A stretch of 64,000 nucleotides of DNA, taken from contig OZ025263.1 of assembly GCA_964019135.1 (NCBI GenBank), forward strand, positions 37,984,133-38,048,132. Direction: 5' to 3'. The position numbers and the translations under genes are program-made. This DNA is from Arenicola marina. Its lineage: Eukaryota > Annelida > Polychaeta > Arenicolidae. The notes under the pieces were generated by a model, which did not search any database, had not been told where the DNA came from, and saw only the letters and a list, made by a program, of their open reading frames with translations. Of this stretch, positions 3,781 to 64,000 are shown in pieces. Within the stretch, counting starts at the first letter, position 1. Each line of letters opens with the position of its first letter.

Positions 3781-3876
3781 CGTTATGCCCGGAAGGGTGT
3801 TACAATGGCGGGACGTGCGCCTCGCCCGGCACCTGTCTATGTATCCATGGTTACAGTGGACGGCGCTGCCAGACAG
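3781..3876 (+). CDS. EGF-like domain exon 3 (internal, phase 1-1), abutting the giant array
   Basis: This 96-bp exon encodes a third EGF-like domain with identical cysteine spacing, YNGGT between C2 and C3 and IHGYSGRR between C5 and C6. The threonine before C3 gives the O-fucose consensus C2-x4-S/T-C3 (POFUT1), and the C5-C6 segment fits the EOGT consensus. The acceptor is CCTTAG at 3775-3780. The exon ends AGACAG|GTGAGG with the donor at 3877, phase 1. The last five exon bases and first six intron bases (GACAGGTGAGG) equal the joint between units of the 51-bp array that follows without any gap. The next exon of the gene must therefore lie beyond 64000, across an intron of more than 60 kb. 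It has no calcium-binding motif, and the gene identity is unknown. Confidence 0.87.
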
Positions 3877-6800
3877 GTGAGGCTATTATACCCGTACATC
3901 CCTGAGGAAGAGAGGTGTAGATGACAGGTGAGGCTATTATACCCGTACACCCCTGCGGAAGAGAGGTGAAGATGCCAGGTGAGGCTATTATACCCGTACA
4001 TACCTGAGGAAGAGAGGTGTAGATGACAGGTGAGGCTATTATACCCTACATCCCTGAGGAAGAGAGGTGTAGATGCCAGGTGAGGCTATTATACCCGTAC
4101 ATCTCTTAGGAAGAGAGGTGTAGATGACAGGTGAGGCTATTATACCCGTACATCCCCGAGGAAGAGAGGTGTAGATGACAGGTGAGGCTATTATACCCTA
4201 CATCCCTGAGGAAGAGAGGTGTAGATGACAGGTGAGGCTATTATACCCTACATCCCTGAGGAAGAGAGGTGTAGATGCCAGGTGAGGCTATTATACCCTA
4301 CATCCCTGAGGAAGAGAGGTGTAGATGACAGGTGAGGCTATTATACCCGTACACCCCCGAGGAAGAGAGGTGTAGATGCCAGGTGAGGCTATTATACCCG
4401 TACATCCCTGAGGAAGAGAGGTGTAGATGCCAGGTGAGGCTATTATACCCGTACATCGCCGAGGAAGAGAGGTGTAGATGACAGGTGAGGCTATTATACC
4501 CGTACATCCCCGAGGAAGAGAGGTGTAGATGACAGGTTAGGCTATTATACCCGTACACCCCCGAGGAAGAGAGGTGTAGATGACAGGTGAGGCTATCATA
4601 CCCGTACATCCCTGAGGAAGAGAGGTGTAGATGCCAGGTGAGGCTATTATACCCGTACATCCCTGAGGAAGAGAGGTGTAGATGCCAGGTGAGGCTATTA
4701 TACCCGTACATCGCCGAGGAAGAGAGGTGTAGATGACAGGTGAGGCTATTATACCCTACACCCCTGAGGAAGAGAGGTGTAGATGCCAGGTGAGGCTATT
4801 ATACCCTACATCCCCGAGGAAGAGAGGTGTAGATGCCAGGTGAGGCTATTATACCCTACATCCCCGAGGAAGAGAGGAGTAGATGCCAGGTGAGGCTATT
4901 ATACCCGTACATCCCTGAGGAAGAGAGGTGTAGATGCCAGGTGAGGCTATTATACCCTACATCCCCGAGGAAGAGAGGTGTAGATGCCAGGTGAGGCTAT
5001 TATACCCCTACATCCTTGAGGAAGAGAGGTGTAGATGACAGGTGAGGCTATTATACCCTACATCCCTGAGGAAGAGAGGTGTAGATGACAGGCGAGACTA
5101 TTATACCCGTACATCCCTGAGGAAGACAGGTGTAGATGACAGGTGAGGCTGTTATACCCGTACATCCCTGAGGAAGAGAGGTGTAGGTGACCGGTGAGGC
5201 TATTATACCCTACATCCCTGAAGAAGACAGGTGTAGATGACAGGTGAGGCTATTATACCCGTACATCCCTGAGGAAGAGAGGTGTAGATGACAGGTGAGG
5301 CTATTATACCCGTACATCCCTGAGGAAGAGAGGTGTAGATGCCAGGTGAGGCTATTATACCCGTACATCCCTGAGAAAAAGAGGTGTAGATGACAGGTGA
5401 GGCTATTATACCCGTACATCCCCGAGGAAGAGAGGTGTAGATGACAGGTGAGGCTATTATACCCGTACATCCCCGAGGAAGAGAGGTGTAGATGACAGGT
5501 GAGGCTATTACACCCGTACATCCCTGAAGAAGAGAGGTGTAGGTGACCGGTGAGGCTATTATACCCTACATCCCTGAAGAAGACAGGTGTAGATGACAGG
5601 TGAGGCTATTATACCCGTACATCCCTGAGGAAGAGAGGTGTAGATGACAGGTGAGGCTATTATACCCTACATCCCTGAGGAAGACAGGTGTAGATGACAG
5701 GTGAGGCTATTATACCCTACATCCCTGAGGAAGAGAGGTGTAGATGTCAGGTGAGGCTATTATACCCTACATCCCCGAGGAAGAGAGGTGTAGATGACAG
5801 GTGAGGCTATTATACCCTACATCCCTGAGGAAGAGAGGTGTAGATGTCAGGTGAGGCTATTATACCCGTACATCCCTGAGGAAGAGAGGTGTAGATGACA
5901 GGTGAGGCTATTATACCCGTACATCCCCGAGGAAGAGAGGTGTAGATGACAGGTGAGGCTATTATACCCTACATCCCTGAGGAAGAGAGGTGTAGATGAC
6001 AGGTGAGGCTATTATACCCTACATCCCCGAGGAAGAGAGGTGTAGATGACAGGTGAGGCTATTATACCCTACATCCCTGAGGAAGAGAGGGGTAGATGTC
6101 AGGTGAGGCTATTATACCCTACATCCCTGAGGAAGAGAGGTGTAGATGACAGGTGAGGCTATTATACCCGTACATCCCCGAGGAAGAGAGGTGTAGATGA
6201 CTGGTGAGACTATTATACCCTACATCCCTGAGGAAGAGAGGTGTAGATGACAGGTGAGGCTATTATACCCGTACATCCCCGAGGAAGAGAGGTGTAGATG
6301 ACAGGTGAGGCTATTATACCCGTACACCGCCGAGGAAGAGAGGTGTAGATGACAGGTGAGGCTATTATACCCGTACATCCCCGAGGAAGAGTGGTGTAGA
6401 TGACAGGTGAGGCTATTATACCCGTACATCGCCGAGGAAGAGAGGTGTAGATGACAGGTGAGACTATTATACCCGTACATCCCTGAGGAAGAGAGGTGTA
6501 GATGACAGGTGAGGCTATTATACCCGTACATCCCCGAGGAAGAGTGGTGTAGATGACAGGTGAGGCTATTATACCCGTACATCCCTGAGGAAGAGAGGTG
6601 TAGATGACAGGTGAGGCTATTATACCCGTACATCCCCGAGGAAGAGTGGTGTAGATGAGAGGTGAGGCTATTATACCCGTACATCCCTGAGGAAGAGAGG
6701 TGTAGATGACAGGTGAGGCTATTATACCCGTACATCCCTGAGGAAGAGAGGTGTAGATGACAGGTGAGGCTATTATACCCGTACATCCCCGAGGAAGAGA

Positions 6801-7150
6801 GGTGTAGATGACAGGTGAGGCTATTATACCCGTACATCCCTGAGGAAGAGAGGTGTAGATGACAGGTGAGGCTATTATACCCGTACATCCCCGAGGAAGA
6901 GAGGTGTAGATGACAGGTGAGGCTATTATACCCGTACATCCCTGAGGAAGAGAGGTGTAGATGACAGGTGAGGCTATTATACCCGTACATCCCCGAGGAA
7001 GAGTGGTGTAGATGACAGGTGAGGCTATTATACCCGTACATCCCCGAGGAAGAGTGGTGTAGATGACAGGTGAGGCTATTATGCCCGTACATCCCCGAGT
7101 AAGAGGTGTAGATGACAGGTGAGGCTATTATACCCGTACATCCCCGAGGA
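3877..7150. repeat. Array domain I: local homogenisation only
   Basis: The exon-proximal units are mixtures of 51- and 50-bp forms with GATGACAG or GATGCCAG ends. They lack the ATTGTAC variant seen later. I recognise only short-range copying, for example a block with GTAGGTGACCGG followed by GAAGAAGACAG near 5181 that recurs about seven units later near 5540. No kilobase-scale partner elsewhere was obvious. The limits are approximate. Confidence 0.6.
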
Positions 7151-7624
7151 AGAGAGGTGTAGGTGACCGGTGAGGCTATTATAACCTACATCCCTGAAGG
7201 AGAGAGGTGTAGATAACAGGTGAGGCTATTATAACCTACATCCCCGAGGAAGAGAGGTTTTGATGTCAGGTGAGGCTATTATACCCTACATCCCTGAGGA
7301 AGAGAGGTGTAGATGACAGGTGAGGCTATTATACCCGTACATCCCCGAGGAAGAGAGGTGTAGATGACAGGTGAGGCTATTATACCCTACATCCCTGAGG
7401 AAGAGAGGTGTAGATGACAGGTGAGGCTATTATACCCGTACATCCCCGAGGAAGAGAGGTGTAGATGACAGGTGAGGCTATTATGCCCTACATCCCTGAG
7501 GAAGAGAGGTGTAGATGACAGGTGAGGCTATTATACCCGTACATCCCCGAGAAAGAGAGGTGTAGATGACAGGTGAGGCTATTATACCCTACATCCCTGA
7601 GGAAGAGAGGTGTAGATGACAGGT

Positions 7625-10265
7625 GAGGCTATGATACCCGTACATCCCCGAGGAAGAGAGGTGTAGATGACAGGTGAGGCTATTATACCCGTACATCCCT
7701 TAGGGAGAGAGGTGTAGATGACAGGTGAGGCTATTATACCCGTACATCCCTTAGGGAGAGAGGTGTAGATGACAGGTGAGGCTATTATACCCCTACTTCC
7801 CCCAGGAAGAGAGGTGTAGATGACAGGTGAGGCTATTATACCCGTACATCCCCGAGTAAGAGGTGTAGATGACAGGTGAGGCTATTATACCCGTACATCT
7901 CCGAGGAAGAGAGGTGTAGATGACAGGTGAGGTTATTATTCCCTACATCCCTGAGGAAGGGAGGTGTAGATGACAGGTGAGGTTATTATATTGTACATCC
8001 CTGAGGAAGACAGGTGTAGATGACAGGTGAGGCTATTATACTCTACATCCCTGAGGAAGACAGGTGTAGATGACAGGTGAGGCTATTATACTCTACATCC
8101 CTGAGGAAGAGAGGTGTAGATGACAGGTGAGGCTATTATACCCGTACATCCCTGAGGAAGAGAGGTGTAGATGAGAGGTGAGGCTATTATACCCTACATT
8201 CCTGAGGAAGAGAGGTGTAGATGACAGGTGAGGCTATTATACCCGTACATCCCTGAGGAAGAGAGGTGTAGATGAGAGGTGAGGCTATTATACCCGTACA
8301 TCCCTTAGGGAGAGAGGTGTAGATGACAGGTGAGGCTATTATACCCCTACATCCCCAAAGAAGAGAGGTGTAGATGACAGGTGAGGCCATTATACCCTAC
8401 ATCCCTGAGGAAGAGAGGTGTAGGTGACCGGTGAGACTGTTATACCCTACATCCCCGAAGAAGAGAGGTGTAGATAACAGGTGAGACTATTATAACCTAC
8501 ATCCCTGAGGAAGAGAGGTGTAGATGACAGGTGAGGCTATTATACCCCTACATCCCTGAGGAAGAGTGGTGTAGATGACAGGTGAGGCTATTATACCCGT
8601 ACATCCCCGAGGAAGAGAGGTGTAGATGACAGGTGAGGCTATTATGCCCGTACATCCCTGAGGAAGAGAGGTGTAGGTGACCGGTGAGGCTATTATACCC
8701 GTACATCCCCGAGGAAGAGAGGTGTAGATGACAGGTGAGGCTATTATACCCGTACATCCCTGAGGAAGAGAGGTGTAGATGACAGGTGAGGCTATTATAC
8801 CCCTACATCCCCAAGGAAGAGAGGTGTAGATGACCGGTGAGGCTATTATACCCTACATCCCTGAAGAAGAGAGGTGTAGATAACAGGTGAGGCTATTATA
8901 ACCTACATCCCCGAGGAAGAGAGGTGTAGATGACAGGTGAGGCTATTGTACCCGTACATCCCTGAGGAAGAGAGGTGTAGGTGACCGGTGAGGCTATTAT
9001 ACCCTACATCCCTGAAGAAGAGAGGTGTAGATGACAGGTGAGGCTATTATACCCTACATCCCTGAGGAAGAGAGGTGTAGATGACAGGTGAGGCTGTTAT
9101 ACCCGTACATCCCCGAGGAAGAGAGGTGTAGATGACAGGTGAGGCTATTATACCCGTACATCGCCGAGGAAGAGAGGTGTAGATGACAGGTGAGGCTATT
9201 ATACCCGTACATCCCCGAGGAAGAGTGGTGTAGATGACAGGTGAGGCTATTATACCCGTACATCGCCGAGGAAGAGAGGTGTAGATGACAGGTGAGACTA
9301 TTATACCCGTACATCCCCGAGGAAGAGAGGTGTAGATGACAGGTGAGGCTATTATACCCGTACATCCCTGAGGAAGAGAGTTGTAGATGACAGGTGAGGC
9401 TATTATACCCGTACATCCCCGAGGAAGAGTGGTGTAGATGACAGGTGAGGCTATTATACCCGTACATCCCTGAGGAAGAGAGGTGTAGATGACAGGTGAG
9501 GCTATTATACCCGTACATCCCCGAGGAAGAGTGGTGTAGATGACAGGTGAGGCTATTATACCCGTACATCCCTGAGGAAGAGAGGTGTAGATGACAGGTG
9601 AGGCTATTATACCCGTACATCCCTGAGGAAGAGAGGTGTAGATGACAGGTGAGGCTATTATACCCGTACATCCCCGAGGAAGAGAGGTGTAGATGACAGG
9701 TGAGGCTATTATACCCGTACATCCCCGAGAAAGAGAGGTGTAGATGACAGGTGAGGCTATTATACCCGTACATCCCCGAGGAAGAGTGGTGTAGATGACA
9801 GGTGAGGCTATTATACCCGTACATCCCCGAGGAAGAGTGGTGTAGATGACAGGTGAGGCTATTATACCCGTGCATCCCCGAGTAAGAGGTGTAGATGACA
9901 GGTGAGGCTATTATACCCGTACATCCCCGAGGAAGAGAGGTGTAGGTGACCGGTGAGGCTATTATACCCTACATCCCTGAAGGAGAGAGGTGTAGATAAC
10001 AGGTGAGGCTATTATAACCTACATCCCCGAGGAAGAGAGGTTTTGATGTCAGGTGAGGCTATTATACCCTACATCCCTGAGGAAGAGAGGTGTAGATGAC
10101 AGGTGAGGCTATTATACCCGTACATACCCGAGGAAGAGAGGTGTAGATGACAGGTGAGGCTATTATACCCTAAATCCCTGAGGAAGAGAGGTGTAGATGA
10201 CAGGTGAGGCTATTATACCCGTACATCCCCGAGGAAGAGAGGTGTAGATGACAGGTGAGGCTATT
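7625..10265. repeat. Higher-order repeat, copy 1 (partner 11217-13806)
   Basis: Variant units match those of 11217-13806 in the same order. The offset is 3592 bp at the left end and 3541 bp after a one-unit difference (two CTTAGGG units at 7700-7760 against one at 11290). Markers include CTATGATACC at 7629 and 11221, and the CTAAATCCCTG unit near 10170. Scattered single-base differences are visible, so this duplication is older than the 10.9-kb one. Confidence 0.8.
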
Positions 10266-11216
10266 ATACCCGTACATCCCAGAGGAAGAGTGGTGTAGAT
10301 GACAGGTGAGGCTATTATACCCGTACATCCCTGAGGAAGAGAGGTGTAGATGACAGGTGAGGCTATTATACCCGTACATCCCTGAGGAAGAGAGGTGTAG
10401 ATGACAGGTGAGGCTATTATACCCGTACATCCCCGATGAAGAGAGGTGTAGATGACAGGTGAGGCTATTATACCCGTACATCCCTGAGGAAGAGAGGTGT
10501 AGATGACAGGTGAGGCTATTATACCCGTACATCCCCGAGGAAGAGTGGTGTAGATGACAGGTGAGGCTATTATACCCGTACTTCCCCCAGGAAGAGAGGT
10601 GTAGATGACAGGTGAGGCTATTATACCCGTACATCCCCGAGGAAGAGTGGTGTAGATGACAGGTGAGGCTATTATACCCGTACATCCCCGAGTAAGAGGT
10701 GTAGATGACAGGTGAGGCTATTATACCCGTACATCCCCGAGGAAGAGAGGTGTAGGTGACCGGTGAGGCTATTATACCCTACATCCCTGAAGAAGAGAGG
10801 TGTAGATAACAGGTGAGGCTATTATAACCTACATCCCCGAGGAAGAGAGGTTTTGATGTCAGGTGAGGCTATTATACCCTACATCCCTTAGGGAGAGAGG
10901 TGTAGATGACAGGTGAGGCTATTATACCCGTACATCGCCGAGGAAGAGAGGTGTAGATGACAGGTGAGACTATTATACCCGTACATCCCCGAGGAAGAGA
11001 AGTGTAGATGACAGGTGAGGCTATTATACCCGTACATCCCTGAGGAAGAGAGGTGTAGGTGACCGGTGAGGCTATTATACCCTACATCCCTGAAGAAGAG
11101 AGATGTAGATAACAGGTGAGGCTATTATAACCTACATCCACGAGGAAGAGAGGTGTAGATGACAGGTGAGGTTATTATACCCGGATATCCCCGAGTAAGA
11201 GGTGTAGATGACAGGT

Positions 11217-13806
11217 GAGGCTATGATACCCGTACATCCCCGAGGAAGAGAGGTGTAGATGACAGGTGAGGCTATTATACCCGTACATCCCTTAGGGAGA
11301 GAGGTGTAGATGACAGGTGAGGCTATTATACCCCTACTTCCCCCAGGAAGAGAGGTGTAGATGACAGGTGAGGCTATTATACCCGTACATCCCCGAGTAA
11401 GAGGTGTAGATGACAGGTGAGGCTATTATACCCGTACATCTCCGAGGAAGAGAGGTGTAGATGACAGGTGAGGTTATTATTCCCTACATCCCTGAGGAAG
11501 GGAGGTGTAGATGACAGGTGAGGTTATTATATTGTACATCCCTGAGGAAGACAGGTGTAGATGACAGGTGAGGCTATTATACTCTACATCCCTGAGGAAG
11601 ACAGGTGTAGATGACAGGTGAGGCTATTATACTCTACATCCCTGAGGAAGAGAGGTGTAGATGACAGGTGAGGCTATTATACCCGTACATCCCTGAGGAA
11701 GAGAGGTGTAGATGAGAGGTGAGGCTATTATACCCTACATTCCTGAGGAAGAGAGGTGTAGATGACAGGTGAGGCTATTATACCCGTACATCCCTGAGGA
11801 AGAGAGGTGTAGATGAGAGGTGAGGCTATTGTACCCGTACATCCCTTAGGGAGAGAGGTGTAGATGACAGGTGAGGCTATTATACCCCTACATCCCCAAA
11901 GAAGAGAGGTGTAGATGACAGGTGAGGCCATTATACCCTACATCCCTGAGGAAGAGAGGTGTAGGTGACCGGTGAGGCTGTTATACCCTACATCCCCGAA
12001 GAAGAGAGGTGTAGATAACAGGTGAGACTATTATAACCTACATCCCTGAGGAAGAGAGGTGTAGATGACAGGTGAGGCTATTATACCCCTACATCCCTGA
12101 GGAAGAGTGGTGTAGATGACAGGTGAGGCTATTATACCCGTACATCCCCGAGGAAGAGAGGTGTAGATGACAGGTGAGGCTATTATGCCCGTACATCCCT
12201 GAGGAAGAGAGGTGTAGGTGACCGGTGAGGCTATTATACCCGTACATCCCCGAGGAAGAGAGGTGTAGATGACAGGTGAGGCTATTATACCCGTACATCC
12301 CTGAGGAAGAGAGGTGTAGATGACAGGTGAGGCTATTATACCCCTACATCCCCAAGGAAGAGAGGTGTAGATGACCGGTGAGGCTATTATACCCTACATC
12401 CCTGAAGAAGAGAGGTGTAGATAACAGGTGAGGCTATTATAACCTACATCCCCGAGGAAGAGAGGTGTAGATGACAGGTGAGGCTATTATACCCGTACAT
12501 CCCTGAGGAAGAGAGGTGTAGGTGACCGGTGAGGCTATTATACCCTACATCCCTGAAGAAGAGAGGTGTAGATGACAGGTGAGGCTATTATACCCTACAT
12601 CCCTGAGGAAGAGAGGTGTAGATGACAGGTGAGGCTGTTATACCCGTACATCCCCGAGGAAGAGAGGTGTAGATGACAGGTGAGGCTATTATACCCGTAC
12701 ATCGCCGAGGAAGAGAGGTGTAGATGACAGGTGAGGCTATTATACCCGTACATCCCCGAGGAAGAGTGGTGTAGATGACAGGTGAGGCTATTATACCCGT
12801 ACATCGCCGAGGAAGAGAGGTGTAGATGACAGGTGAGACTATTATACCCGTACATCCCCGAGGAAGAGAGGTGTAGATGACAGGTGAGGCTATTATACCC
12901 GTACATCCCTGAGGAAGAGAGTTGTAGATGACAGGTGAGGCTATTATACCCGTACATCCCCGAGGAAGAGTGGTGTAGATGACAGGTGAGGCTATTATAC
13001 CCGTACATCCCTGAGGAAGAGAGGTGTAGATGACAGGTGAGGCTATTATACCCGTACATCCCCGAGGAAGAGTGGTGTAGATGACAGGTGAGGCTATTAT
13101 ACCCGTACATCCCTGAGGAAGAGAGGTGTAGTTGACAGGTGAGGCTATTATACCCGTACATCCCTGAGGAAGAGAGGTGTAGATGACAGGTGAGGCTATT
13201 ATACCCGTACATCCCCGAGGAAGAGAGGTGTAGATGACAGGTGAGGCTATTATACCCGTACATCCCCGAGAAAGAGAGGTGTAGATGACAGGTGAGGCTA
13301 TTATACCCGTACATCCCCGAGGAAGAGTGGTGTAGATGACAGGTGAGGCTATTATACCCGTACATCCCCGAGGAAGAGTGGTGTAGATGACAGGTGAGGC
13401 TATTATACCCGTGCATCCCCGAGTAAGAGGTGTAGATGACAGGTGAGGATATTATACCCGTACATCCCCGAGGAAGAGAGGTGTAGGTGACCGGTGAGGC
13501 TATTATACCCTACATCCCTGAAGGAGAGAGGTGTAGATAACAGGTGAGGCTATTATAACCTACATCCCCGAGGAAGAGAGGTTTTGATGTCAGGTGAGGC
13601 TATTATACCCTACATCCCTGAGGAAGAGAGGTGTAGATGACAGGTGAGGCTATTATACCCGTACATACCCGAGGAAGAGAGGTGTAGATGACAGGTGAGG
13701 CTATTATACCCTAAATCCCTGAGGAAGAGAGGTGTAGATGACAGGTGAGGCTATTATACCCGTACATCCCCGAGGAAGAGAGGTGTAGATGACAGGTGAG
13801 GCTATT
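11217..13806. repeat. Higher-order repeat, copy 2 (partner 7625-10265)
   Basis: Second copy of the 3.5-kb-offset duplication; the match stops near 13806. Its left part, with sequence from about 10270, also matches 15890-18130 at a constant offset of 5620 bp (for example GGATATCCCCGAG at 11183 and 16803). The array is therefore a mosaic of overlapping duplications rather than one regular higher-order unit. Confidence 0.75.
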
Positions 13807-15956
13807 ATACCCTACATCCCTGAGGAAGAGAGGTGTAGATGACAGGTGAGGCTATTATACCCGTACATCCCCGAGGAAGAGAGGTGTAGATGACAGGTGA
13901 GGCTATTATACCCTACATCCCTGAGGAAGAGAGGTGTAGATGACAGGTGAGGCTATTATACCCTACATCCCCGAGGAAGAGAGGTGTAGATGACAGGTGA
14001 GGCTATTATACCCGTACATCGCCGAGGAAGAGAGGTGTAGATGACAGGTGAGGCTATTATACCCGTACATCCCCGAGGAAGAGTGGTGTAGATGACAGGT
14101 GAGGCTATTATACCCGTACATCGCCGAGGAAGAGAGGTGTAGATGACAGGTGAGACTATTATACCCGTACATCCCCGAGGAAGAGAGGTGTAGATGACAG
14201 GTGAGGCTATTATACCCGTACATCCCTGAGGAAGAGAGGTGTAGATGACAGGTGAGGCTATTATACCCGTACATCCCCGAGGAAGAGTGGTGTAGATGAC
14301 AGGTGAGGCTATTATACCCGTACATCCCTGAGGAAGAGAGGTGTAGATGACAGGTGAGGCTATTATACCCGTACATCCCAGAGGAAGAGTGGTGTAGATG
14401 ACAGGTGAGGCTATTATACCCGTACATCCCCGAGGAAGAGAGTTGTAGATGACAGGTGAGGCTATTATACCCGTACATCCCCGAGGAAGAGTGGTGTAGA
14501 TGACAGGTGAGGCTATTATACCCGTACATCCCTGAGGAAGAGAGGTGTAGATGACAGGTGAGGCTATTATACCCGTACATCCCCGAGGAAGAGTGGTGTA
14601 GATGACAGGTGAGGCTATTATACCCGTACATCCCTGAGGAAGAGAGGTGTAGTTGACAGGTGAGGCTATTATACCCGTACATCCCTGAGGAAGAGAGGTG
14701 TAGATGACAGGTGAGGCTATTATACCCGTACATCCCCGAGGAAGAGAGGTGTAGATGACAGGTGAGGCTATTATACCCGTACATCCCCGAGAAAGAGAGG
14801 TGTAGATGACAGGTGAGGCTATTATACCCGTACATCCCCGAGGAAGAGTGGTGTAGATGACAGGTGAGGCTATTATACCCGTACATCCCCGAGGAAGAGT
14901 GGTGTAGATGACAGGTGAGGCTATTATACCCGTGCATCCCCGAGTAAGAGGTGTAGATGACAGGTGAGGATATTATACCCGTACATCCCCGAGGAAGAGA
15001 GGTGTAGGTGACCGGTGAGGCTATTATACCCTACATCCCTGAAGGAGAGAGGTGTAGATAACAGGTGAGGCTATTATAACCTACATCCCCGAGGAAGAGA
15101 GGTTTTGATGTCAGGTGAGGCTATTATACCCTACATCCCTGAGGAAGAGAGGTGTAGATGACAGGTGAGGCTATTATACCCGTACATACCCGAGGAAGAG
15201 AGGTGTAGATGACAGGTGAGGCTATTATACCCTAAATCCCTGAGGAAGAGAGGTGTAGATGACAGGTGAGGCTATTATACCCGTACATCCCCGAGGAAGA
15301 GAGGTGTAGATGACAGGTGAGGCTATTATACCCTACATCCCTGAGGAAGAGAGGTGTAGATGACAGGTGAGGCTATTATACCCGTACATCCCCGAGGAAG
15401 AGAGGTGTAGATGACAGGTGAGGCTATTATACCCTACATCCCTGAGGAAGAGAGGTGTAGATGACAGGTGAGGCTATTATACCCTACATCCCCGAGGAAG
15501 AGAGGTGTAGATGACAGGTGAGGCTATTATACCCGTACATCGCCGAGGAAGAGAGGTGTAGATGACAGGTGAGGCTATTATACCCGTACATCCCCGAGGA
15601 AGAGTGGTGTAGATGACAGGTGAGGCTATTATACCCGTACATCGCCGAGGAAGAGAGGTGTAGATGACAGGTGAGACTATTATACCCGTACATCCCCGAG
15701 GAAGAGAGGTGTAGATGACAGGTGAGGCTATTATACCCTTACATCCCTGAGGAAGAGAGGTGTAGATGACAGGTGAGGCTATTATACCCGTACATCCCCG
15801 AGGAAGAGTGGTGTAGATGACAGGTGAGGCTATTATACCCGTACATCCCTGAGGAAGAGAGGTGTAGATGACAGGTGAGGCTATTATACCCGTACATCCC
15901 AGAGGAAGAGTGGTGTAGATGACAGGTGAGGCTATTATACCCGTACATCCCCGAGG
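12915..15956. repeat. Tandem duplication of a 1521-bp block
   Basis: 12915-14435 and 14436-15956 match at an offset of 1521 bp (30 units). Rare variants recur at that distance: GAGTTGTAG at 12919 and 14440, GAGGATATTAT near 13445 and 14966, and the CTAAATCCCTG unit near 13712 and 15233. Confidence 0.75.
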
Positions 15957-48900: not shown

Positions 48901-49357
48901 GAGGAAGAGAGGTGTAGATGACAGGTGAGGCTATTATACCCGTACATCCCTGAGGAAGAGAGGTGTAGATGTCAGGTGAGGCTATTATACCCTACATCCC
49001 TGAGGAAGAGAGGTGTAGATGTCAGTTGAGGCTATTATACCCGTACATCCCTGAGGAAGAGAGGTGTAGATGACAGGTGAGGCTATTATACCCCTACATC
49101 CCTGAGGAAGAGAGGTGTAGATGCCAGGTGAGGCTATTATACCCGTACACCCCCGAGGAAGAGAGGTGTAGATGACAGGTGAGGCTATTATACCCGTACA
49201 TCCCTGAGGAAGAGAGGTGTAGATGACAGGTGAGGCTATTATACCCGTACACCCCCGAGGAAGAGAGGTGTAGATGACAGGTGAGGCTATTATACCCGTA
49301 CATCCCTGAGGAAGAGAGGTGTAGATGCCAGGTGAGGCTATTATATTGTACATCCCT
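39929..49357. repeat. 9.43-kb tandem duplication, copy 2
   Basis: Second copy with the same variant order as 30500-39928 and few visible single-base differences. It continues past 49357 into sequence like 34280-34680. Near 49770 it switches to units like those at about 47080 (offset about 2722 bp), marking another exchange point. Confidence 0.8.
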
Positions 49358-49769
49358 GAGGAAGAGAGGTGTAGACGACAGGTGAGGCTATTATACCCTA
49401 CATCCCTGAGGAAGAGAGGTGTAGATGACAGGTGAGGCTATTATACCCGTACATCCCTGAGGAAGAGAGGTGTAGATGACAGGTGAGGCTATTATATTGT
49501 ACATCCCTGAGGAAGAGAGGTGTAGATGCCAGGTGAAGCTATTATACCCGTACATCCCTGAGGAAGAGAGGTGTAGATGTCAGGTGAGGCTATTATACCC
49601 TACATCCCTGAGGAAGAGAGGTGTAGATGCCAGGTGAGGCTATTATACCCGTACATCCCTGAGGAAGAGAGGTGTGGATGTCAGGTGAGGCTATTATACC
49701 CTACATCCCTGAGGAAGAGAGGTGTAGATGTCAAGTGAGGCTATTATACCCGTACATCCCTGAGGAAGA

Positions 49770-52700: not shown

Positions 52701-55700
52701 CAGGTGAGGCTATTATACCCTACATCCCTGAGGAAGAGAGGTGTAGATGACAGGTGAGGCTATTATACCCTACATCCCTGAGGAAGAGAGGTGTAGATGC
52801 CAGGTGAGGCTATTATACCCTACATCCCTGAGGAAGAGAGGTGTAGATGACAGGTGAGGCTATTATATTGTACATCCCTGAGGAAGAGAGGTGTAGACGA
52901 CAGGTGAGGCTATTATACCCGTACATCCCTGAGGAAGAGAGGTGTAGATGTCAGGTGAGGCTATTATACCCTACATCCCTGAGGAAGAGAGGTGTAGATG
53001 TCAGGTGAGGCTATTATACCCGTGCATCCCTGAGGAAGAGAGGTGTAGATGCCAGGTGAGGCTATTATACCCGTACATCCCTGAGGAAGAGAGGTGTAGA
53101 TGACAGGTGAGGCTATTATACCCCTACATCCCTGAGGAAGAGAGGTGTAGATGCCAGGTGAGGCTATTATACCCTACATCCCTGAGGAAGAGAGGTGTAG
53201 ATGACAGGTGAGGCTATTATACCCTACATCCCTGAGGAAGAGAGGTGTAGATGTCAGGTGAGGCTATTATACCCTACATCCCTGAGGAAGAGAGGTGTAG
53301 ACGACAGGCGAGGCTATTATACCTTACATCCCTGAGGAAGAGAGGTGTAGATGACAGGTGAGGCTATTATATTGTACATCCCTGAGGAAGAGAGGCGTAG
53401 ATGACAGGTGAGGCTATTATATTGTACATCCCTGAGGAAGAGAGGTGTAGATGACAGGTGAGGCTATTATATTGTACATCCCTGAGGAAGAGAGGTGTAG
53501 ATGACAGGTGAGGCTATTATACCCTACATCCCTGAGGAAGAGAGGTGTAGATGACAGATGAGGCTATTATACCCGTACATACCTTAGGAAGAGAGGTGTA
53601 GATGACAGGTGAGGCTATTATATTGTACATCCCTGAGGAAGAGAGGTGTAGATGACAGGTGAGGCTATTATATTGTACATCCCTGAGGAAGAGAGGTGTA
53701 GATGACAGGTGAGGCTATTATACCCTACATCCCTGAAGAAGAGAGGTGTAGATGACAGGTGAGGCTATTATATTGTACATCCCTGAGGAAGAGAGGTGTA
53801 GATGACAGGTGAGGCTATTATATTGTACATCCCTGAGGAAGAGAGGTGTAGATGACAGGTGAGGCTATTATATTGTACATCCCTGAGGAAGAGAGGTGTA
53901 GATGACAGGTGAGGCTATTATATTGTACATCCCTGAGGAAGAGAGGTGTAGATGACAGGTGAGGCTAATATATTGTACATCCCTGAGGAAGAGAGGTGTA
54001 GATGACAGGTGAGGCTATTGTATTGTACATCCCTGAGGAAGAGAGGTGTAGATGACAGGTGAGGCTATTATACCCGTACACCCCCGAGGAAGAGAGGTGT
54101 AGATGACAGGTGAGGCTATTATACCCGTACATCCCTGAGGAAGAGAGGTGTAGATGACAGGTGAGGCTATTATACCCTACATCCCCGAGGAAGAGAGGTG
54201 TAGATGACAGGTGAGGCTATTATACCCGTACATACCTTAGGAAGAGAGGTGTAGATGACAGGTGAGGCTATTATACCCGTACATCGCCGAGGAAGAGAGG
54301 TGTAGATGACAGGTGAGGCTATTATACTCGTACATACCTTAGGAAGAGAGGTGTAGATGACAGGTGAGGCTATTATATCTTACATCCCTGAGGAAGAGGG
54401 GTGTAGATGACAGGTGAGGCTATTATACCCCTACATCCCTGAGGAAGAGATGTGTAGATGACAGGTGAGGCTATTATACCCGTACATACCTTAGGAAGAG
54501 AGGTGTAGATGACAGGTGAGGCTATTATACTCGTACATACCTTAGGAAGAGAGGTGTAGATGCCAGGTGAGGCTATTATATTGTACATCCCTGAGGAAGA
54601 GGGGTGTAGATGACAGGTGAGGGTATTATACCCGTACATCCCCGAGGAAGAGAGGTGTAGATGACAGGTGAGGCTATTATAACCTACATCCCTGAGGAAG
54701 AGAAGTGTAGATGTCAGGTGAGGCTATTATACCCGTACATACCTTAGGAAGAGAGGTGTAGATGCCAGGTGAGGCTATTATACCCGTACATCCCCGAGGA
54801 AGAGAGGTGTAGATGACAGGTGAGGCTATTATACCCCTACATCTCTGAGGAAGAGAGGTGTAGATGCCAGGTGAGGCTATTATATTGTACATCCCTGAGG
54901 AAGAGAGGTGTAGATGACAGGTGAGGCTATTATACCCTACATCCCTGAGGAAGAGAGGTGTAGATGCCAGGTGAGGCTATTATACCCTACATCCCTGAGG
55001 AAGAGAGGTGTAGATGCCAGGTGAGGCTATTATATTGTACATCCCTGAGGAAGCGAGGTGTAGATGCCAGGTGAGGCTATTATACCCTACATCCCTGAGG
55101 AAGAGAGGTGTAGATGCCAGGTGAGGCTATTATATTGTACATCCCTGAGGAAGAGAGGTGTAGATGTCAGGTGAGGCCATTATACCCTACATCCCTGAGG
55201 AAGAGAGGTGTAGATGCCAGGTGAGGCTATTATATTGTACATCAATGAGGAAGAGAGGTGTAGATGCCAGGTGAGGCTATTATACCCTACGTCCCCGAGA
55301 AAGAGAGGTGTAGATGACAGGTGAGGCTATTATACCCGTACACCCCTGAGGAAGAGAGGTGTAGATGCCAGGTGAGGTTATTATACCCTACATCCCTGAG
55401 GAAGAGAGGTGTAGATGCCAGGTGAGGCTATTATATTGTACATCCCTAAGGAAGAGAGGTGTAGATGTCAGGTGAGGCCAGTATACCCTACATCCCTGAG
55501 GAAGAGAGGTGTAGATGCCAGGTGAGGCTATTATACCCTACATCCCTGAAGAAGAGAGGTGTAGATGAGAGGTGAGGCTATTATATTGTACATCCCTGAG
55601 GAAGAGAGGTGTAGATGACAGGTGAGGCTATTATATTGTACATCCCTGAGGAAGAGAGGTGTAGATGACAGGTGAGGCTATTATATTGTACATCCCTGAG

Positions 55701-58700
55701 GAAGAGAGGTGTAGATGACAGGTGAGGCTATTATATTGTACATCCCTGAGGAAGAGAGGTGTAGATGACAGGTGAGGCTATTATATTGTACATCCCTGAG
55801 GAAGAGAGGTGTAGATGACAGGTGAGGCTATTGTATTGTACATCCCTGAGGAAGAGAGGTGTAGATGACAGGTGAGGCTATTATACCCGTACACCCCCGA
55901 GGAAGAGAGGTGTAGATGACAGGTGAGGCTATTATACCCGTACATCCCTGAAGAAGAGAGGTGTAGATGACAGGTGAGGCTATTATACCCTACATCCCCG
56001 AGGAAGAGAGGTGTAGATGACAGGTGAGGCTATTATACCCGTACATACCTTAGGAAGAGAGGTGTAGATGACAGGTGAGGCTATTATACCCGTACATCGC
56101 CGAGGAAGAGAGGTGTAGATGACAGGTGAGGCTATTATACTCGTACATACCTTAGGAAGAGAGGTGTAGATGACAGGTGAGGCTATTATATTGTACATCC
56201 CTGAGGAAGAGGGGTGTAGATGACAGGTGAGGCTATTATACCCCTACATCCCTGAGGAAGAGATGTGTAGATGACAGGTGAGGCTATTATACCCGTACAT
56301 ACCTTAGGAAGAGAGGTGTAGATGACAGGTGAGGCTATTATACTCGTACATACCTTAGGAAGAGAGGTGTAGATGACAGGTGAGGCTATTATATTGTACA
56401 TCCCTGAGGAAGAGGGGTGTAGATGACAGGTGAGGCTATTATACCCGTACGTCCCTGAGGAAGAGAGGTGTAGATGACAGGTGAGGCTATTATAACCTAC
56501 ATCCCTGAGGAAGAGAGGTGTAGATGTCAGGTGAGGCTATTATACCCGTACATACCTTAGGAAGAGAGGTGTAGATGCCAGGTGAGGCTATTATACCCGT
56601 ACACCCCCGAGGAAGAGAGGTGTAGATGACAGGTGAGGCTATTATACCCCTACATCTCTGAGGAAGAGAGGTGTAGATGCCAGGTGAGGCTATTATATTG
56701 TACATCCCTGAGGAAGAGAGGTGTAGATGACAGGTGAGGCTATTATACCCTACATCCCTGAGGAAGAGAGGTGTAGATGCCAGGTGAGGCTATTATATTG
56801 TACATCCCTGAGGAAGAGAGGTGTAGATGCCAGGTGAGGCTATTATACCCTACATCCCTGAGGAAGAGAGGTGTAGATGCCAGGTGAGGCTATTATATTG
56901 TACATCCCTGAGGAAGAGAGGTGTAGATGTCAGGTGAGGCCATTATACCCTACATCCCTGAGGAAGAGAGGTGTAGATGCCAGGTGAGGCTATTATATTG
57001 TACATCAATGAGGAAGAGAGGTGTAGATGCCAGGTGAGGCTATTATACCCTACGTCCCCGAGGAAGAGAGGTGTAGATGACAGGTGAGGCTATTATACCC
57101 GTACACCCCTGAGGAAGAGAGGTGTAGATGCCAGGTGAGGTTATTATACCCTACATCCCTGAGGAAGAGAGGTGTAGATGCCAGGTGAGGCTATTATATT
57201 GTACATCCCTGAGGAAGAGAGGTGTAGATGTCAGGTGAGGCCAGTATACCCTACATCCCTGAGGAAGAGAGGTGTAGATGCCAGGTGAGGCTATTATATT
57301 GTACATCCCTGAGGAAGAGCGGTGTAGATGCCAGGTGAGGCTATTATAACCCTACATTCCCGAGGAAGAGAGGTGTAGATGACAGGTGAGGCTATTATAC
57401 CCTACATCCCTTAGGGAGAGAGGTGTAGATGACAGGTGAGGCCATTTTACCCTACATCCCTTAGGGAGAGAGGTGTAGATGCCAGGTGAGGCTATTATAC
57501 CCGTACATACCTTAGGGAGAGAGGTGTAGATGACAGGTGAGGCTATTATACCCGTACATCGCCGAGGAAGAGAGGTGTAGATGACAGGTGAGGCTATTAT
57601 ACCCTACATCCCCGAGGAAGAGAGGTGTAGATGACAGGTGAGGCTATTATACCCCTACATCCCTGAGGAAGAGAGGTGTAGATGACAGGTGAGGCTATTA
57701 TACCCGTGCATACCTTAGGAAGAGAGGTGTAGATGACAGGTGAGGCTATTATATTGTACATCCCTGAGGAAGAGAGGTGTAGATGACAGGTGAGGCTATT
57801 ATACCCGTACATCCCTGAGGAAGAGAGGTGTAGATGACAGGTGAGGCTATTATACCCGTACACCCCGAGGAAAAGAGGTGTAGATGCCAGGTGAGGCTAT
57901 TATACCCTACATCCCTGAAGAAGAGAGGTGTAGATGACAGGTGAGGCTATTATATTGTACATCCCTGAGGAAGAGAGGTGTAGATGACAGGTGAGGCTAT
58001 TATATTGTACATCCCTAAGGAAGAGAGGTGTAGATGACAGGTGAGGCTATTATATTGTACATCCCTGACGAAGAGAGTTGTAGATGACAGGTGAGGCTAT
58101 TATATTGTACATCCCTGAGGAAGAGAGGTGTAGATGACAGGTGAGGCTATTATATTGTACATCCCTGAGGAAGAGAGGTGTAGATGACAGGTGAGGCTAT
58201 TGTATTGTACATCCCTGAGGAAGAGAGGTGTAGATGACAGGTGAGGCTATTATACCCGTACACCCCCGAGGAAGAGAGGTGTAGATGACAGGTGAGGCTA
58301 TTATACCCGTACATCCCTGAGGAAGAGAGGTGTAGATGACAGGTGAGGCTATTATACCCTACATCCCCGAGGAAGAGAGGTGTAGATGACAGGTAAGGCT
58401 ATTATACCCGTACATACCTTAGGAAGAGAGGTGTAGATGACAGGTGAGGCTATTATACCCGTACATCGCCGAGGAAGAGAGGTGTAGATGACAGGTGAGG
58501 CTATTATACTCGTACATACCTTAGGAAGAGAGGTGTAGATGACAGGTGAGGCTATTATATTGTACATCCCTGAGGAAGAGGGGTGTAGATGACAGGTGAG
58601 ACTATTATACCCCTACATCCCTGAGGAAGAGATGTGTAGATGACAGGTGAGGCTATTATACCCGTACATACCTTAGGAAGAGAGGTGTAGATGACAGGTG

Positions 58701-61700
58701 AGGCTATTATACTCCTACATACCTTAGGAAGAGAGGTGTAGATGACAGGTGAGGCTATTATATTGTACATCCCTGAGGAAGAGGGGTGTAGATGACAGGT
58801 GAGGCTATTATACCCGTACATCCCTGAGGAAGAGAGGTGTAGATGACAGGTGAGGCTATTATAACCTACATCCCTGAGGAAGAGAGGTGTAGATGTCAGG
58901 TGAGGCTATTATACCCGTACATACCTTAGGAAGAGAGGTGTAGATGCCAGGTGAGGCTATTATACCCGTACATCCCCGAGGAAGAGAGGTGTAGATGACA
59001 GGTGAGGCTATTATACCCCTACATCTCTGAGGAAGAGAGGTGTAGATGCCAGGTGAGGCTATTATATTGTACATCCCTGAGGAAGAGAGGTGTAGATGAC
59101 AGGTGAGGCTATTATACCCTACATCCCTGAGGAAGAGAGGTGTAGATGCCAGGTGAGGCTATTATACCCTACATCCCTGAGGAAGAGAGGTGTAGATGCC
59201 AGGTGAGGCTATTATATTGTACATCCCTGAGGAAGAGAGGTGTAGATGCCAGGTGAGGCTATTATACCCTACATCCCTGAGGAAGAGAGGTGTAGATGCC
59301 AGGTGAGGCTATTATATTGTACATCCCTGAGGAAGAGAGGTGTAGATGTCAGGTGAGGCCATTATACCCTACATCCCTGAGGAAGAGAGGTGTAGATGCC
59401 AGGTGAGGCTATTATATTGTACATCAATGAGGAAGAGAGGTGTAGATGCCAGGTGAGGCTATTATACCCTACGTCCCCGAGGAAGAGAGGTGTAGATGAC
59501 AGGTGAGGCTATTATACCCGTACACCCCTGAGGAAGAGAGGTGTAGATGCCAGGTGAGGTTATTATACCCTACATCCCTGAGGAAGAGAGGTGTAGATGC
59601 CAGGTGAGGCTATTATATTGTACATCCCTGAGGAAGAGAGGTGTAGATGTCAGGTGAGGCCAGTATACCCTACATCCCTGAGGAAGAGAGGTGTAGATGC
59701 CAGGTGAGGCTATTATATTGTACATCCCTGAGGAAGAGCGGTGTAGATGCCAGGTGAGGCTATTATAACCCTACATCCCCGAGGAAGAGAGGTGTAGATG
59801 ACAGGTGAGGCTATTATACCCTACATCCCTTAGGGAGAGAGGTGTAGATGACAGGTGAGGCCATTTTACCCTACATCCCTTAGGGAGAGAGGTGTAGATG
59901 CCAGGTGAGGCTATTATACCCGTACATACCTTAGGGAGAGAGGTGTAGATGACAGGTGAGGCTATTATACCCGTACATCGCCGAGGAAGAGAGGTGTAGA
60001 TGACAGGTGAGGCTATTATACCCTACATCCCCGAGGAAGAGAGGTGTAGATGACAGGTGAGGCTATTATTCCCCTACATCCCTGAGGAAGAGAGGTGTAG
60101 ATGACAGGTGAGGCTATTATACCCGTGCATACCTTAGGAAGAGAGGTGTAGATGACAGGTGAGGCTATTATATTGTACATCCCTGAGGAAGAGAGGTGTA
60201 GATGACAGGTGAGGCTATTATACCCGTACATCCCTGAGGAAGAGAGGTGTAGATGACAGGTGAGGCTATTATACCCGTACATCGCCGAGGAAGAGAGGTG
60301 TAGATGACAGGTGAGGCTATTATACCCTACATCCCCGAGGAAGAGAGGTGTAGATGACAGGTGAGGCTATTATACCCCTACATCCCTGAGGAAGAGAGGT
60401 GTAGATGACAGGTGAGGCTATTATACCCGTACATACCTTAGGAAGAGAGGTGTAGATGACAGGTGAGGCTCTTATATTGTACATCCCTGAGGAAGAGAGG
60501 TGTAGATGACAGGTGAGGCTATTATACCCGTACATCCCTGGGGAAGAGAGGTGTAGATGACAGGTAAGGCTATTATATTGTACATCCCTGGGGAAGAGAG
60601 GTGTAGATGACAGGTGAGGCTATTATATCCGTACATCCCTGAGGAAGAGAGGTGTAGATGACAGGTGAGGCTATTATACCCGTACACCCCCGAGGAAGAG
60701 AGGTGTAGATGACAGGTGAGGCTATTATACCCGTACATCCCTGAGGAAGAGAGGTGTAGATGACAGGTGAGGCTATTATACCCGTACATCCCTGAGGAAG
60801 AGAGGTGTAGATGACAGGTGAGGCTATTATACCCTACATCCCTGAGGAAGAGAGGTGTAGATGAGAGGTGAGGCTATTATACCCGTACATCCCTGAGGAA
60901 GAGAGGTGTAGATGACAGGTGAGGCTATTATACCCCTACATCCCTGAGGAAGAGAGGTGTAGATGCCAGGTGAGGCTATTATATTGTACATCCCTGAGGA
61001 AGAGAGGTGTAGATGTCAGGTGAGGCCATTATACCCTACATCCCTGAGGAAGAGAGGTGTAGATGCCAGGTGAGGCTATTATATTGTACATCAATGAGGA
61101 AGAGAGGTGTAGATGCCAGGTGAGGCTATTATACCCTACGTCCCCGAGGAAGAGAGGTGTAGATGACAGGTGAGGCTATTATACCCGTACACCCCTGAGG
61201 AAGAGAGGTGTAGATGCCAGGTGAGGTTATTATACCCTACATCCCTGAGGAAGAGAGGTGTAGATGCCAGGTGAGGCTATTATATTGTACATCCCTGAGT
61301 AAGAGAGGTGTAGATGTCAGGTGAGGCCAGTATACCCTACATCCCTGAGGAAGAGAGGTGTAGATGCCAGGTGAGGCTATTATATTGTACATCCCTGAGG
61401 AAGAGCGGTGTAGATGCCAGGTGAGGCTATTATACCCGTACATCCCTGAGGAAGAGGGGTGTAGATGACAGGTGAGGCTATTATACCCTACATCCCTGAG
61501 GAAGAGAGGTGTAGATGCCAGGTGAGGCTATTATATTGTACATCCCTGAGGAAGAGAGGTGTAGATGTCAGGTGAGGCCATTATACCCTACATCCCTGAG
61601 GAAGAGAGGTGTAGATGCCAGGTGAGGCTATTATATTGTACATCAATGAGGAAGAGAGGTGTAGATGCCAGGTGAGGCTATTATACCCTACGTCCCCGAG

Positions 61701-64000
61701 GAAGAGAGGTGTAGATGACAGGTGAGGCTATAATACCCGTACACCCCTGAGGAAGAGAGGTGTAGATGCCAGGTGAGGTTATTATACCCTACATCCCTGA
61801 GGAAGAGAGGTGTAGATGCCAGGTGAGGCTATTATATTGTACATCCCTGAGTAAGAGAGGTGTAGATGTCAGGTGAGGCCAGTATACCCTACATCCCTGA
61901 GGAAGAGAGGTGTAGATGCCAGGTGAGGCTATTATATTGTACATCCCTGAGGAAGAGCGGTGTAGATGCCAGGTGAGGCTATTATACCCCTACATCCCCG
62001 AGGAAGAGAGGTGTAGATGACAGGTGAGGCTATTATACCCTACATCCCTTAGGGAGAGAGGTGTAGATGACAGGTGAGGCCATTTTACCCTACATCCCTT
62101 AGGGAGAGAGGTGTAGATGCCAGGTGAGGCTATTATACCCGTACATACCTTAGGGAGAGAGGTGTAGATGACAGGTGAGGCTATTATACCCGTACATCCC
62201 CGAGGAAGAGAGGTGTAGATGACAGGTGAGGCTATTATACCCCTACATCCCCGAGGAAGAGAGGTGTAGATGACAGGTGAGGCTATTATACCCCTACATC
62301 CCTGAGGAAGAGAGGTGTAGATGACAGGTGAGGCTATTATACCCGTACATCGCCGAGGAAGAGAGGTGTAGATGACAGGTGAGGCTATTATACCCTACAT
62401 CCCCGAGGAAGAGAGGTGTAGATGACAGGTGAGGCTATTATACCCCTACATCCCTGAGGAAGAGAGGTGTAGATGACAGGTGAGGCTATTATACCCGTAC
62501 ATACCTTAGGAAGAGAGGTGTAGATGACAGGTGAGGCTATTATATTGTACATCCCTGAGGAAGAGAGGTGTAGATGACAGATGAGGCTATTATACCCGTA
62601 CATCCCTGAGGAAGAGAGGTATAGATGACAGGTGAGGCTATTATACCCGTACATCGCCGAGGAAGAGAGGTGTAGATGACAGGTGAGGCTATTATACCCT
62701 ACATCCCCGAGGAAGAGAGGTGTAGATGACAGGTGAGGCTATTATACCCCTACATCCCTGAGGAAGAGAGTTGTAGATGACAGGTGAGGCTATTATACCC
62801 GTACATACCTTAGGAAGAGAGGTGTAGATGTCAGGTGAGGCTCTTATATTGTACATCCCTGGGGAAGAGAGGTGTAGATGACAGGTGAGGCTATTATACC
62901 CGTACATCCCTGAGGAAGAGAGGTGTAGATGACAGGTGAGGCTATTATATTGTACATCCCTGGGGAAGAGAGGTGTAGATGACAGGTGAGGCTATTATAT
63001 CCGTACATCTCTGAGGAAGAGAGGTGTAGATGACAGGTGAGGCTATTATACCCGTACACCCCCGAGGAAGAGAGGTGTAGATGACAGGTGAGGCTATTAT
63101 ACCCTACATCCCTGAGAAAGAGAGGTGTAGATGAGAGGTGAGGCTATTATACCCGTACATCCCTGAGGAAGAGAGGTGTAGATGACAGGTGAGGCTATTA
63201 TACCCTACATCCCTGAGGAAGAGAGGTGTAGATGCCAGGTGAGGCTATTATATTGTACATCCCTGAGGAAGAGAGGTGTAGATGTCAGGTGAGGCCATTA
63301 TACCCTACATCCCTGAGGAAGAGAGGTGTAGATGCCAGGTGAGGCTATTATATTGTACATCAATGAGGAAGAGAGGTGTAGATGCCAGGTGAGGCTATTA
63401 TACCCTACGTCCCCGAGGAAGAGAGGTGTAGATGACAGGTGAGGCTATTATACCCGTACACCCCTGAGGAAGAGAGGTGTAGATGCCAGGTGAGGTTATT
63501 ATACCCTACATCCCTGAGGAAGAGAGGTGTAGATGCCAGGTGAGGCTATTATATTGTACATCCCTGAGGAAGAGAGGTGTAGATGTCAGGTGAGGCCAGT
63601 ATACCCTACATCCCTGAGGAAGAGAGGTGTAGATGCCAGGTGAGGCTATTATATTGTACATCCCTGAGGAAGAGCGGTGTAGATGCCAGGTGAGGCTATT
63701 ATACCCCTACATCCCCGAGGAAGAGAGGTGTAGATGACAGGTGAGGCTATTATACCCTACATCCCTTAGGGAGAGAGGTGTAGATGACAGGTGAGGCCAT
63801 TTTACCCTACATCCCTTAGGGAGAGAGGTGTAGATGCCAGGTGAGGCTATTATACCCGTACATACCTTAGGGAGAGAGGTGTAGATGACAGGTGAGGCTA
63901 TTATACCCGTACATCCCCGAGGAAGAGAGGTGTAGATGACAGGTGAGGCTATTATACCCCTACATCTCTGAGGAAGAGAGGTGTAGATGACAGGTGAGGC
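49770..64000. repeat. Array domain III: ATTGTAC/GATGCCAG-rich 1.7-2.4 kb higher-order repeats
   Basis: To about 50.6 kb the units resemble those near 47-48 kb. Beyond that, many units are the 50-bp ATTGTAC form with GATGCCAG or GATGTCAG ends, and the GTAGGTGACCGG units typical of 7-46 kb are absent as far as I can see. The rare unit ACATCAATGAGG recurs at 51868, 55239, 57002, 59421, 61088, 61640 and 63357. Other landmark pairs give offsets of 1813 (54677/56490), 2369 (55983/58352), 2419 (57597/60016) and 2372 bp (60016/62388). A 552-bp block (60961-61430 and 61513-61982) is a local eleven-unit duplication. Confidence 0.78.

What the first reader, a model, noticed from the sequence alone, without database searches (positions are those of the whole stretch)
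3781..64000. A 60-kb intronic minisatellite built from copies of the exon's own 5' splice site
The real exon 3/intron 3 border reads GACAG|GTGAGG at 3872-3882, and the joint between successive 51-bp units also reads GACAG|GTGAGG. The array starts at that border with no spacer, so the intron has roughly 1,190 donor consensus sequences in a row on the transcribed strand. Seen: the identity and the zero gap. Known: CAG|GTGAGG is a strong U1 target. Inferred: the array grew by slippage or unequal exchange between the true donor and a second GACAGGTGAGG 51 bp inside the intron.
Basis: partly seen in the sequence, partly recalled or inferred. Interest (0 to 1): 0.85.

Follow-up and report, generated by a model that had tools for sequence, protein, structure and literature searches.

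The report
Sixty-kilobase array of copied splice donors
In an animal genome (by its mitochondrial gene order probably an annelid worm), one gene's intron consists almost wholly of about 1,245 head-to-tail copies of its own 51-base start, most of them bearing a strong splice signal, and several other genes of the same genome show the same kind of repeat growing from exon ends.

Summary
Exon 3 (3781-3876) is one of a run of one-EGF, phase-1 exons. Its donor GACAG|GTGAGG (3872-3882) is the first joint of a 51-bp array that starts at intron base 1. In the window's own genome the array runs on to 66,691: 1,245 units, 62.8 kb, 99.6% of a 63.1-kb intron. AG|GTRAG is intact at 1,140 of 1,245 joints; 1,082 pair with U1 at least as well as the real donor.

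It is not a one-off. Of 12 tandem-donor arrays seen in capped lists for contig C1, 11 had their 5' edge in view. Eight start at or inside an open-frame exon with its donor in register and no gap; in seven of these the unit also carries 16-46 bases of that exon. This supports birth by tandem duplication across the exon-intron junction. That is the 'mirage' structure described in amphioxus genes, here in a probable annelid and far larger.

The donor bases evolve no more slowly than the rest of the unit, so a selected U1-binding role is not supported. Most likely it is a neutral minisatellite, tolerated because the first donor is used. Which donor is used is inferred; no RNA data were available.

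The parts
3203..3295 (+). Exon 2, one EGF-like domain, phase 1-1, donor CCC|GTAAGT
   Evidence: Reading frame and length; Pfam EGF_2 26.3 bits, cut-off 22.1
3781..3876 (+). Exon 3, one EGF-like domain, phase 1-1; its last five bases GACAG are the part shared with the repeat unit
   Evidence: Frame; shared bases; Pfam EGF_2 21.1 bits, just under its cut-off of 22.1
3872..3882 (+). Real 5' splice site GACAG|GTGAGG (intron base 1 at 3877); U1 duplex -11.6 kcal/mol
3877..64000 (+). 51/50-bp minisatellite of donor-bearing units filling intron 3; it continues past the window to position 66,691 in window numbering (1,245 units in all); exon 4 follows at 66,946-67,041
   Evidence: TRF; parse; extension from the window's own genome; intron length

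Best explanation
The array is a junction-born minisatellite, that is, a giant 'mirage'. A short tandem duplication took in the last bases of exon 3 and about 46 bases of the intron, which made a second 5' splice site 51 bp downstream of the first. Repeated unequal exchange or slippage, including block duplications of many units, then expanded it to about 1,245 units. It is tolerated because the first donor, next to the exon body, keeps defining the exon, so everything after it is intron and is removed. The later donors are probably bound by U1 but not productively used, since they are not paired with a nearby 3' splice site. Shown: structure, register, computed U1 pairing, the same architecture at other genes with exon sequence inside the units, and no excess constraint on donor bases. 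Inferred: the duplication route, use of the first donor in vivo, and neutrality.
For: Array in register from intron base 1 with a perfect-consensus first unit. The donor sits at the same place (C-x-x plus one base) as in sister EGF exons 4 and 5, so the donor position looks ancestral and the array grew from it. Other C1 loci: 8 of 11 arrays with a visible 5' edge begin at or in an open-frame exon at zero gap; exonic bases repeated in unit 2 are 39, 16, 37, 3, 46, 39, 39 and 44. A further 27-bp donor array in L064 starts 12 nt inside an open-frame exon. Genome-wide triple-donor patterns exceed the reversed-pattern control: 6,768 vs 1,426, 2,435 vs 414 and 4,564 vs 1,994 (the first and third overlap in part). 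Neutrality: 12 of 67 private single substitutions fall in the 9 donor columns, 11.8 expected. Using the second donor instead of the first adds an in-frame TGA, so first-donor use is the coding-compatible choice.
Against: In the window only 5 exonic bases are shared with the unit, so growth of an intronic array up to the exon edge cannot be excluded there. No RNA data show which donor is used. The single-copy donor motif is itself in excess over its reversed control (27,868 vs 11,198), so a special donor preference for array birth is not shown. Of the 11 C1 arrays with a visible edge, one (3.43 Mb, L057) has no evident exon there, one (13.88 Mb, L061) has the exon donor about 140 bp upstream, and one (the 42-bp array at 1.09 Mb) abuts another donor array rather than an exon. 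Only 3 of 9 exon peptides scanned reach a Pfam cut-off.
Confidence: 0.75

Rival explanations
1. An ordinary intronic minisatellite that arose inside the intron and spread until stopped by selection at the exon edge; the GACAG match to the exon end is short homology or chance, and the first donor was then overwritten by a unit copy.
For: Only 5 exonic bases are shared in the window and 3 at the 1.75-Mb locus. Arrays whose consensus lacks a donor core are common around this gene: 38-bp array in intron 1, 67-bp repeats in intron 2, 57-bp array downstream.
Against: Seven C1 loci carry 16-46 bases of the adjacent exon in the second unit, which spread from inside the intron does not give. The first unit in the window matches the consensus fully, while the 3' edge is the decayed one.
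Confidence: 0.18
2. The array is kept because its roughly 1,100 U1 sites do something, for example hold off premature cleavage and polyadenylation across a long intron (telescripting, recalled).
For: 1,140 of 1,245 joints keep AG|GTRAG and 1,207 pair with U1 at -8 kcal/mol or better.
Against: Donor columns are hit as often as the others by private substitutions, 12 of 67 against 11.8 expected; unique-type substitutions per column do not differ (Mann-Whitney p = 0.52; nine donor columns against 36 others, six hypervariable columns left out). The intron is long only because of the array (99.6%).
Confidence: 0.05
3. Each AG|GT joint is a ratchet point or dual-specific splice site, so the intron is removed in steps or units are spliced out stochastically.
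For: Most units start GT and end AG, and AG|GT is the dual-site core described in PMC10809524.
Against: The 18 bases upstream of the joint's CAG are 18% pyrimidine on average (maximum 28%), against 67-78% at the real acceptors of exons 2-4, so no polypyrimidine tract is present.
Confidence: 0.04
4. The copy number is inflated by assembly of near-identical blocks; the true array is much shorter.
For: Unit types recur at lags of 187, 215 and 112 units (about 9.4, 10.8 and 5.6 kb), as block copies would give.
Against: Recurrence is partial (at most 19% of units identical at any lag from 1 to 699), and 234 unit types are interleaved. The structure itself does not depend on the length.
Confidence: 0.08

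Closest known systems
Amphioxus 'mirages' (Adh3, globin, PGBD5 and troponin C genes; passages of PMC3087553 and PMC3902484 read; the Adh3 and troponin C papers themselves not seen)
   Same: Minisatellite-like tandem duplication of an exon-intron boundary; many but not all units with AG/GT signals; suggested there not to interfere with regular splicing.
   Different: Probable annelid, not a lancelet. 1,245 units over 62.8 kb against 3 and 6 units in the two BflGb6 haplotypes. Units here 27-84 bp; there 10-72 bp (Adh3), 60 and 108 bp (PGBD5) and 150-160 bp (globins). Nine or more loci in one genome seen here. No RNA check here.
Dual-specific splice sites in tandem repeats (UBC, VCX3A; abstract and passages of PMC10809524 read)
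   Same: A tandem array whose joints read AG|GT.
   Different: There the joints delimit coding repeats and serve as both 5' and 3' sites; here the joints lack a pyrimidine tract and the array is intronic.
Intron gain by tandem genomic duplication of AGGT (passages of PMC3443670 read)
   Same: Tandem duplication that includes an AGGT splice core.
   Different: There an exonic duplication makes a new intron; here the intron is one of a series between phase-1 EGF exons and was enlarged, not created.
Intronic minisatellites of earthworm metallothionein genes (passages of PMC12783039 read)
   Same: Large minisatellite in an annelid intron.
   Different: Monomers of 178 and 181 bp on average, in the first intron; the passages read do not place them at a splice site.

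Membership tests
Amphioxus-type mirage | Tandem units span an exon-intron boundary | tested here: met
   Window: 5 exonic bases plus 46 intronic per unit. Seven C1 loci: 16-46 exonic bases in unit 2. Weak for the window alone.
Amphioxus-type mirage | Many units carry AG/GT splice signals | tested here: met
   AG|GTRAG at 1,140 of 1,245 joints.
Amphioxus-type mirage | Regular splicing of the mRNA is not disturbed | not testable with these tools
   No transcripts held for this genome.
Amphioxus-type mirage | Length instability between haplotypes, and somatic instability | not testable with these tools
   One assembly only; block recurrences fit turnover but do not prove it.
Recursive or dual-specific splice sites | AG|GT joint with 5' splice site strength | tested here: met
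   Computed U1 duplex -11.6 kcal/mol or better at 1,082 of 1,245 joints; use in vivo not tested.
Recursive or dual-specific splice sites | Polypyrimidine tract upstream of the AG | tested here: not met
   Mean 18% pyrimidine, maximum 28%.
Intron gain by tandem genomic duplication | The duplication creates a new intron in an exon | tested here: not met
   The intron is one of a series of phase-1 introns between single-EGF exons; the array lies within it.

The most novel reading that the evidence does not exclude
In this lineage 5' splice sites are a recurrent birthplace of minisatellites, so genes repeatedly turn their own exon ends into kilobases of donor arrays, and the splicing machinery of the animal reliably picks the first of tens to more than a thousand near-identical donors.
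Probability: 0.25. Interest if true: 0.8.

Novelty: new variant of a known kind. Interest (0 to 1): 0.6.

Why it matters
How the spliceosome chooses among equal 5' splice sites is usually studied with a few artificial copies (recalled). Here is a natural intron with 1,140 intact AG|GTRAG copies in a row and an in-frame stop in the first unit that would mark any slip to the second. The same genome offers further genes with different unit lengths and copy numbers. It also extends mirages from lancelets to a probable annelid and shows that coding sequence at exon ends can seed long intronic arrays, a route by which introns lengthen.

Tried and rejected
Amphioxus as host: suggested by the mirage likeness. 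A GFP-family search of the genome found nothing, but its controls rang nowhere, so it excludes nothing. The mitochondrial contig (C762, 15,942 bp) points to an annelid: cox1 by Pfam search, nad4, nad1, nad3, nad2, cox2, nad6, cytb, atp6 and nad5 as + strand frames under code 5, 9 of 9 scanned with a Pfam match, nad6 below its cut-off, nad2 called from the shared antiporter family and its place, tRNAs by ARAGORN (25 called, 2 of them on the minus strand and not fitting the order). Genes not scanned (cox3, atp8, nad4L, rRNAs) were placed by eye. That this order is the annelid one is recalled. No species name was obtained.

Donor preference for array birth: considered, not established. Triple-donor counts exceed reversed controls by 4.7, 5.9 and 2.3 times, but the single motif does so by 2.5 times, and counts clump by array. 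In the first 22.5 Mb of C1, as listed, 8 arrays match the donor pattern and 2 match its reversed pattern; one of those 2 holds GGTGAGTGGAC, itself donor-like. The lists are capped at about 100 places, so completeness over that stretch is assumed.

Acceptor arrays: TTTTGCAG triples 113 vs 432 control, but the single motif shows no excess (31,453 vs 32,524), so it does not mark acceptors and the test is void. A looser acceptor pattern gave 24,173 vs 18,503, and its first listed array reads CAGGTAAGG, a donor. Inconclusive.

Selection on the donor: rejected on private substitutions. Gradient along the array: none overall (Spearman -0.04, p = 0.16), though the 3' edge is decayed and the 5' edge clean.

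Unread: the original Adh3 minisatellite paper; a lookup by a PubMed id typed from recall was not held, so what I say of Adh3 comes from passages of the two papers. Paper searches for novelty. In the titles and abstract starts listed (one search showed 20 of 404 papers, 12 of 13) I saw no donor-bearing array of this size and none in an annelid. Subscription journals and preprints are mostly not in that library.

Rows dropped: of 12 C1 arrays, the one at 22.5 Mb was dropped from the boundary count because its 5' edge was not reached. The C1 arrays are those listed first, not a random sample of the genome; the array met (1.06 Mb) was not examined.
Full report
WHAT IS THERE. The window begins in a gene made of single-EGF exons. 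Exons 2-5 are 93, 96, 96 and 96 nt, phase 1 on both sides. The joined exon 1-3 peptide passes the Pfam EGF_2 cut-off. Taken singly, exons 2, 4 and 5 reach an EGF family's cut-off, while exon 3 stays just under (EGF_2 21.1 bits against 22.1). Exon 3 is 3781-3876. Its donor, GACAG|GTGAGG, opens a 51-bp tandem array without a gap. The window's own genome is held (867 Mb, 762 contigs), and the flanking DNA was fetched. The array runs to 66,691 in window numbering. It has 1,245 units, 633 of 51 bp and 553 of 50 bp. Intron 3 is 3877-66945, 63,069 bp, of which the array is 99.6%; exon 4 is 66,946-67,041.

THE JOINTS. GT opens 1,227 of 1,245 units, AG|GTRAG is intact at 1,140, and CAGGTGAGG is exact at 1,081. 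U1 genes of this genome were found by Rfam RF00003 (42 matches, a lower bound), and the one read has the 5' end AUACUUACCUG. Against it, 1,082 of 1,245 joints pair at -11.6 kcal/mol or better, the value of the real donor; donors of exons 1, 2, 4 and 5 give -11.9, -7.3, -7.3 and -3.7 (in one search the exon 5 site was taken one base off). So most internal copies pair as well as the real site, and better than three of the gene's four other donors examined. The joints are not plausible 3' splice sites: the 18 bases before the CAG are 18% pyrimidine on average, against 67-78% at the real acceptors of exons 2-4. If the second donor were used in place of the first, the added 51 bases would bring an in-frame TGA.

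CONSTRAINT AND TURNOVER. There are 234 distinct unit types. Of 67 private single substitutions, 12 fall in the nine donor columns, with 11.8 expected; unique-type substitutions per column do not differ between donor and other columns (Mann-Whitney p = 0.52, six hypervariable columns left out). The donor bases are thus preserved by array homogenisation like the rest, not by visible selection. Unit types recur at lags of 187, 215 and 112 units, a sign of block duplication or possibly of assembly. The first ten units depart from the consensus by 0.6 per unit on average over 42 stable columns, the last ten by 2.4, but there is no steady gradient.

THE SAME THING ELSEWHERE IN THE GENOME. Patterns of three strong donors at minisatellite spacing occur 6,768, 2,435 and 4,564 times, against 1,426, 414 and 1,994 for the reversed pattern; the first and third counts share arrays. 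The capped lists fall into 12 arrays on contig C1. The 5' edge was reached for 11. Eight begin at or inside an open-frame exon, donor in register, no gap: 331 kb, 606 kb, 1.56 Mb, 1.75 Mb, 4.59 Mb, 6.23 Mb, 9.84 Mb and 18.70 Mb. Nine exon peptides, these eight and the one at 13.88 Mb, were scanned with Pfam: three reach a cut-off (Aldedh at 606 kb, TTL at 4.59 Mb, TSP1_ADAMTS at 9.84 Mb), three match below it (AlaDh_PNT_N at 331 kb, Lustrin_cystein at 1.75 Mb, Copper-bind at 6.23 Mb), and three have no match (1.56, 13.88 and 18.70 Mb), so there the exon rests on an open frame and flanking signals only. The exonic bases repeated in unit 2 number 39, 16, 37, 3, 46, 39, 39 and 44, with at most three mismatches. 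At 13.88 Mb the exon's own donor stands alone and the array, a diverged copy of the exon end by eye, starts about 140 bp further on; at 3.43 Mb no exon is evident. At 1.09 Mb the 42-bp array is preceded by a 27-bp donor array that itself starts 12 bases inside an open-frame exon. The array at 22.5 Mb was not reached.

WHAT IT IS. Units that carry sequence of the adjacent exon can hardly arise except by duplication across the junction. The window's array has the same register but only five exonic bases, so it is placed in this class by analogy as well as by its own structure. [quoted passage not shown] According to PMC3087553 and PMC3902484 (passages read) many but not all units carry AG/GT signals, cluster length varies, and regular splicing is apparently not disturbed. 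The differences here are scale, number of loci seen, and host. The mitochondrial contig has its recognised protein genes on one strand in an order that I recall as the annelid one. An annelid is the likely host; no species was named.

HOW IT MOST LIKELY WORKS. A tandem duplication over the exon 3 donor made a second donor 51 bp inside the intron. The exon is still defined by its own acceptor and the first donor, so the copy is intronic and nearly free to multiply by unequal exchange. Donor quality in later units then persists through homogenisation alone. First-donor use, tolerance and neutrality are inferred; the architecture, register, computed U1 pairing and recurrence are shown. A special tendency of donors to seed arrays remains open: array counts exceed reversed controls, but so does the single motif (27,868 vs 11,198), and acceptor tests were inconclusive.

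AGAINST. The arguments from other genes do not prove the history of this one; in a genome this rich in minisatellites (other arrays in introns 1 and 2 and downstream) an intronic array could also have grown up to the exon edge. Array length could be partly an assembly product. No RNA was available.

Noticed in passing
window 1153-3185: 38-bp array of 53.6 copies in intron 1; each unit has a pyrimidine-rich run followed by CCACCAG, acceptor-like on the + strand, and the array ends 17 bases before exon 2. It may be a mirror case of acceptor-like copies.
   Followed up: no
window 1-183 and L012 8308-9993: G-rich 73-bp repeats containing AAGGTGAGGG upstream of exon 1; whether they start at an earlier exon's donor was not checked.
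   Followed up: no
L010 and L011 (C18:38058000-38077999): A C-rich 57-bp array fills these 20 kb, downstream of exon 5; its ends were not sought.
   Followed up: no
window 3877-64000, minus strand: Read on the minus strand the consensus unit holds CACCTCTCTTCCTCAG|GG, acceptor-like, so an antisense transcript would carry an acceptor array.
   Followed up: no
G000:C12:556678-593202 (L014-L017): U1 snRNA genes in a tandem array, mostly at 616-bp spacing; 41 of the 42 matches listed lie there and score alike.
   Followed up: no
L064 805-1829: 27-bp array GCTACTGCACCG|GTAAGTCAGCCCCAA starting 12 nt inside an open-frame exon and running directly into a second 42-bp array that also bears donor-like sequence.
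   Followed up: partly
G000:C1:1064543-1069685: 54-bp array of TTCCCCAGGTAAGG units, with pyrimidines before AG|GT, so these joints might be better dual or recursive sites than those of the window.
   Followed up: no
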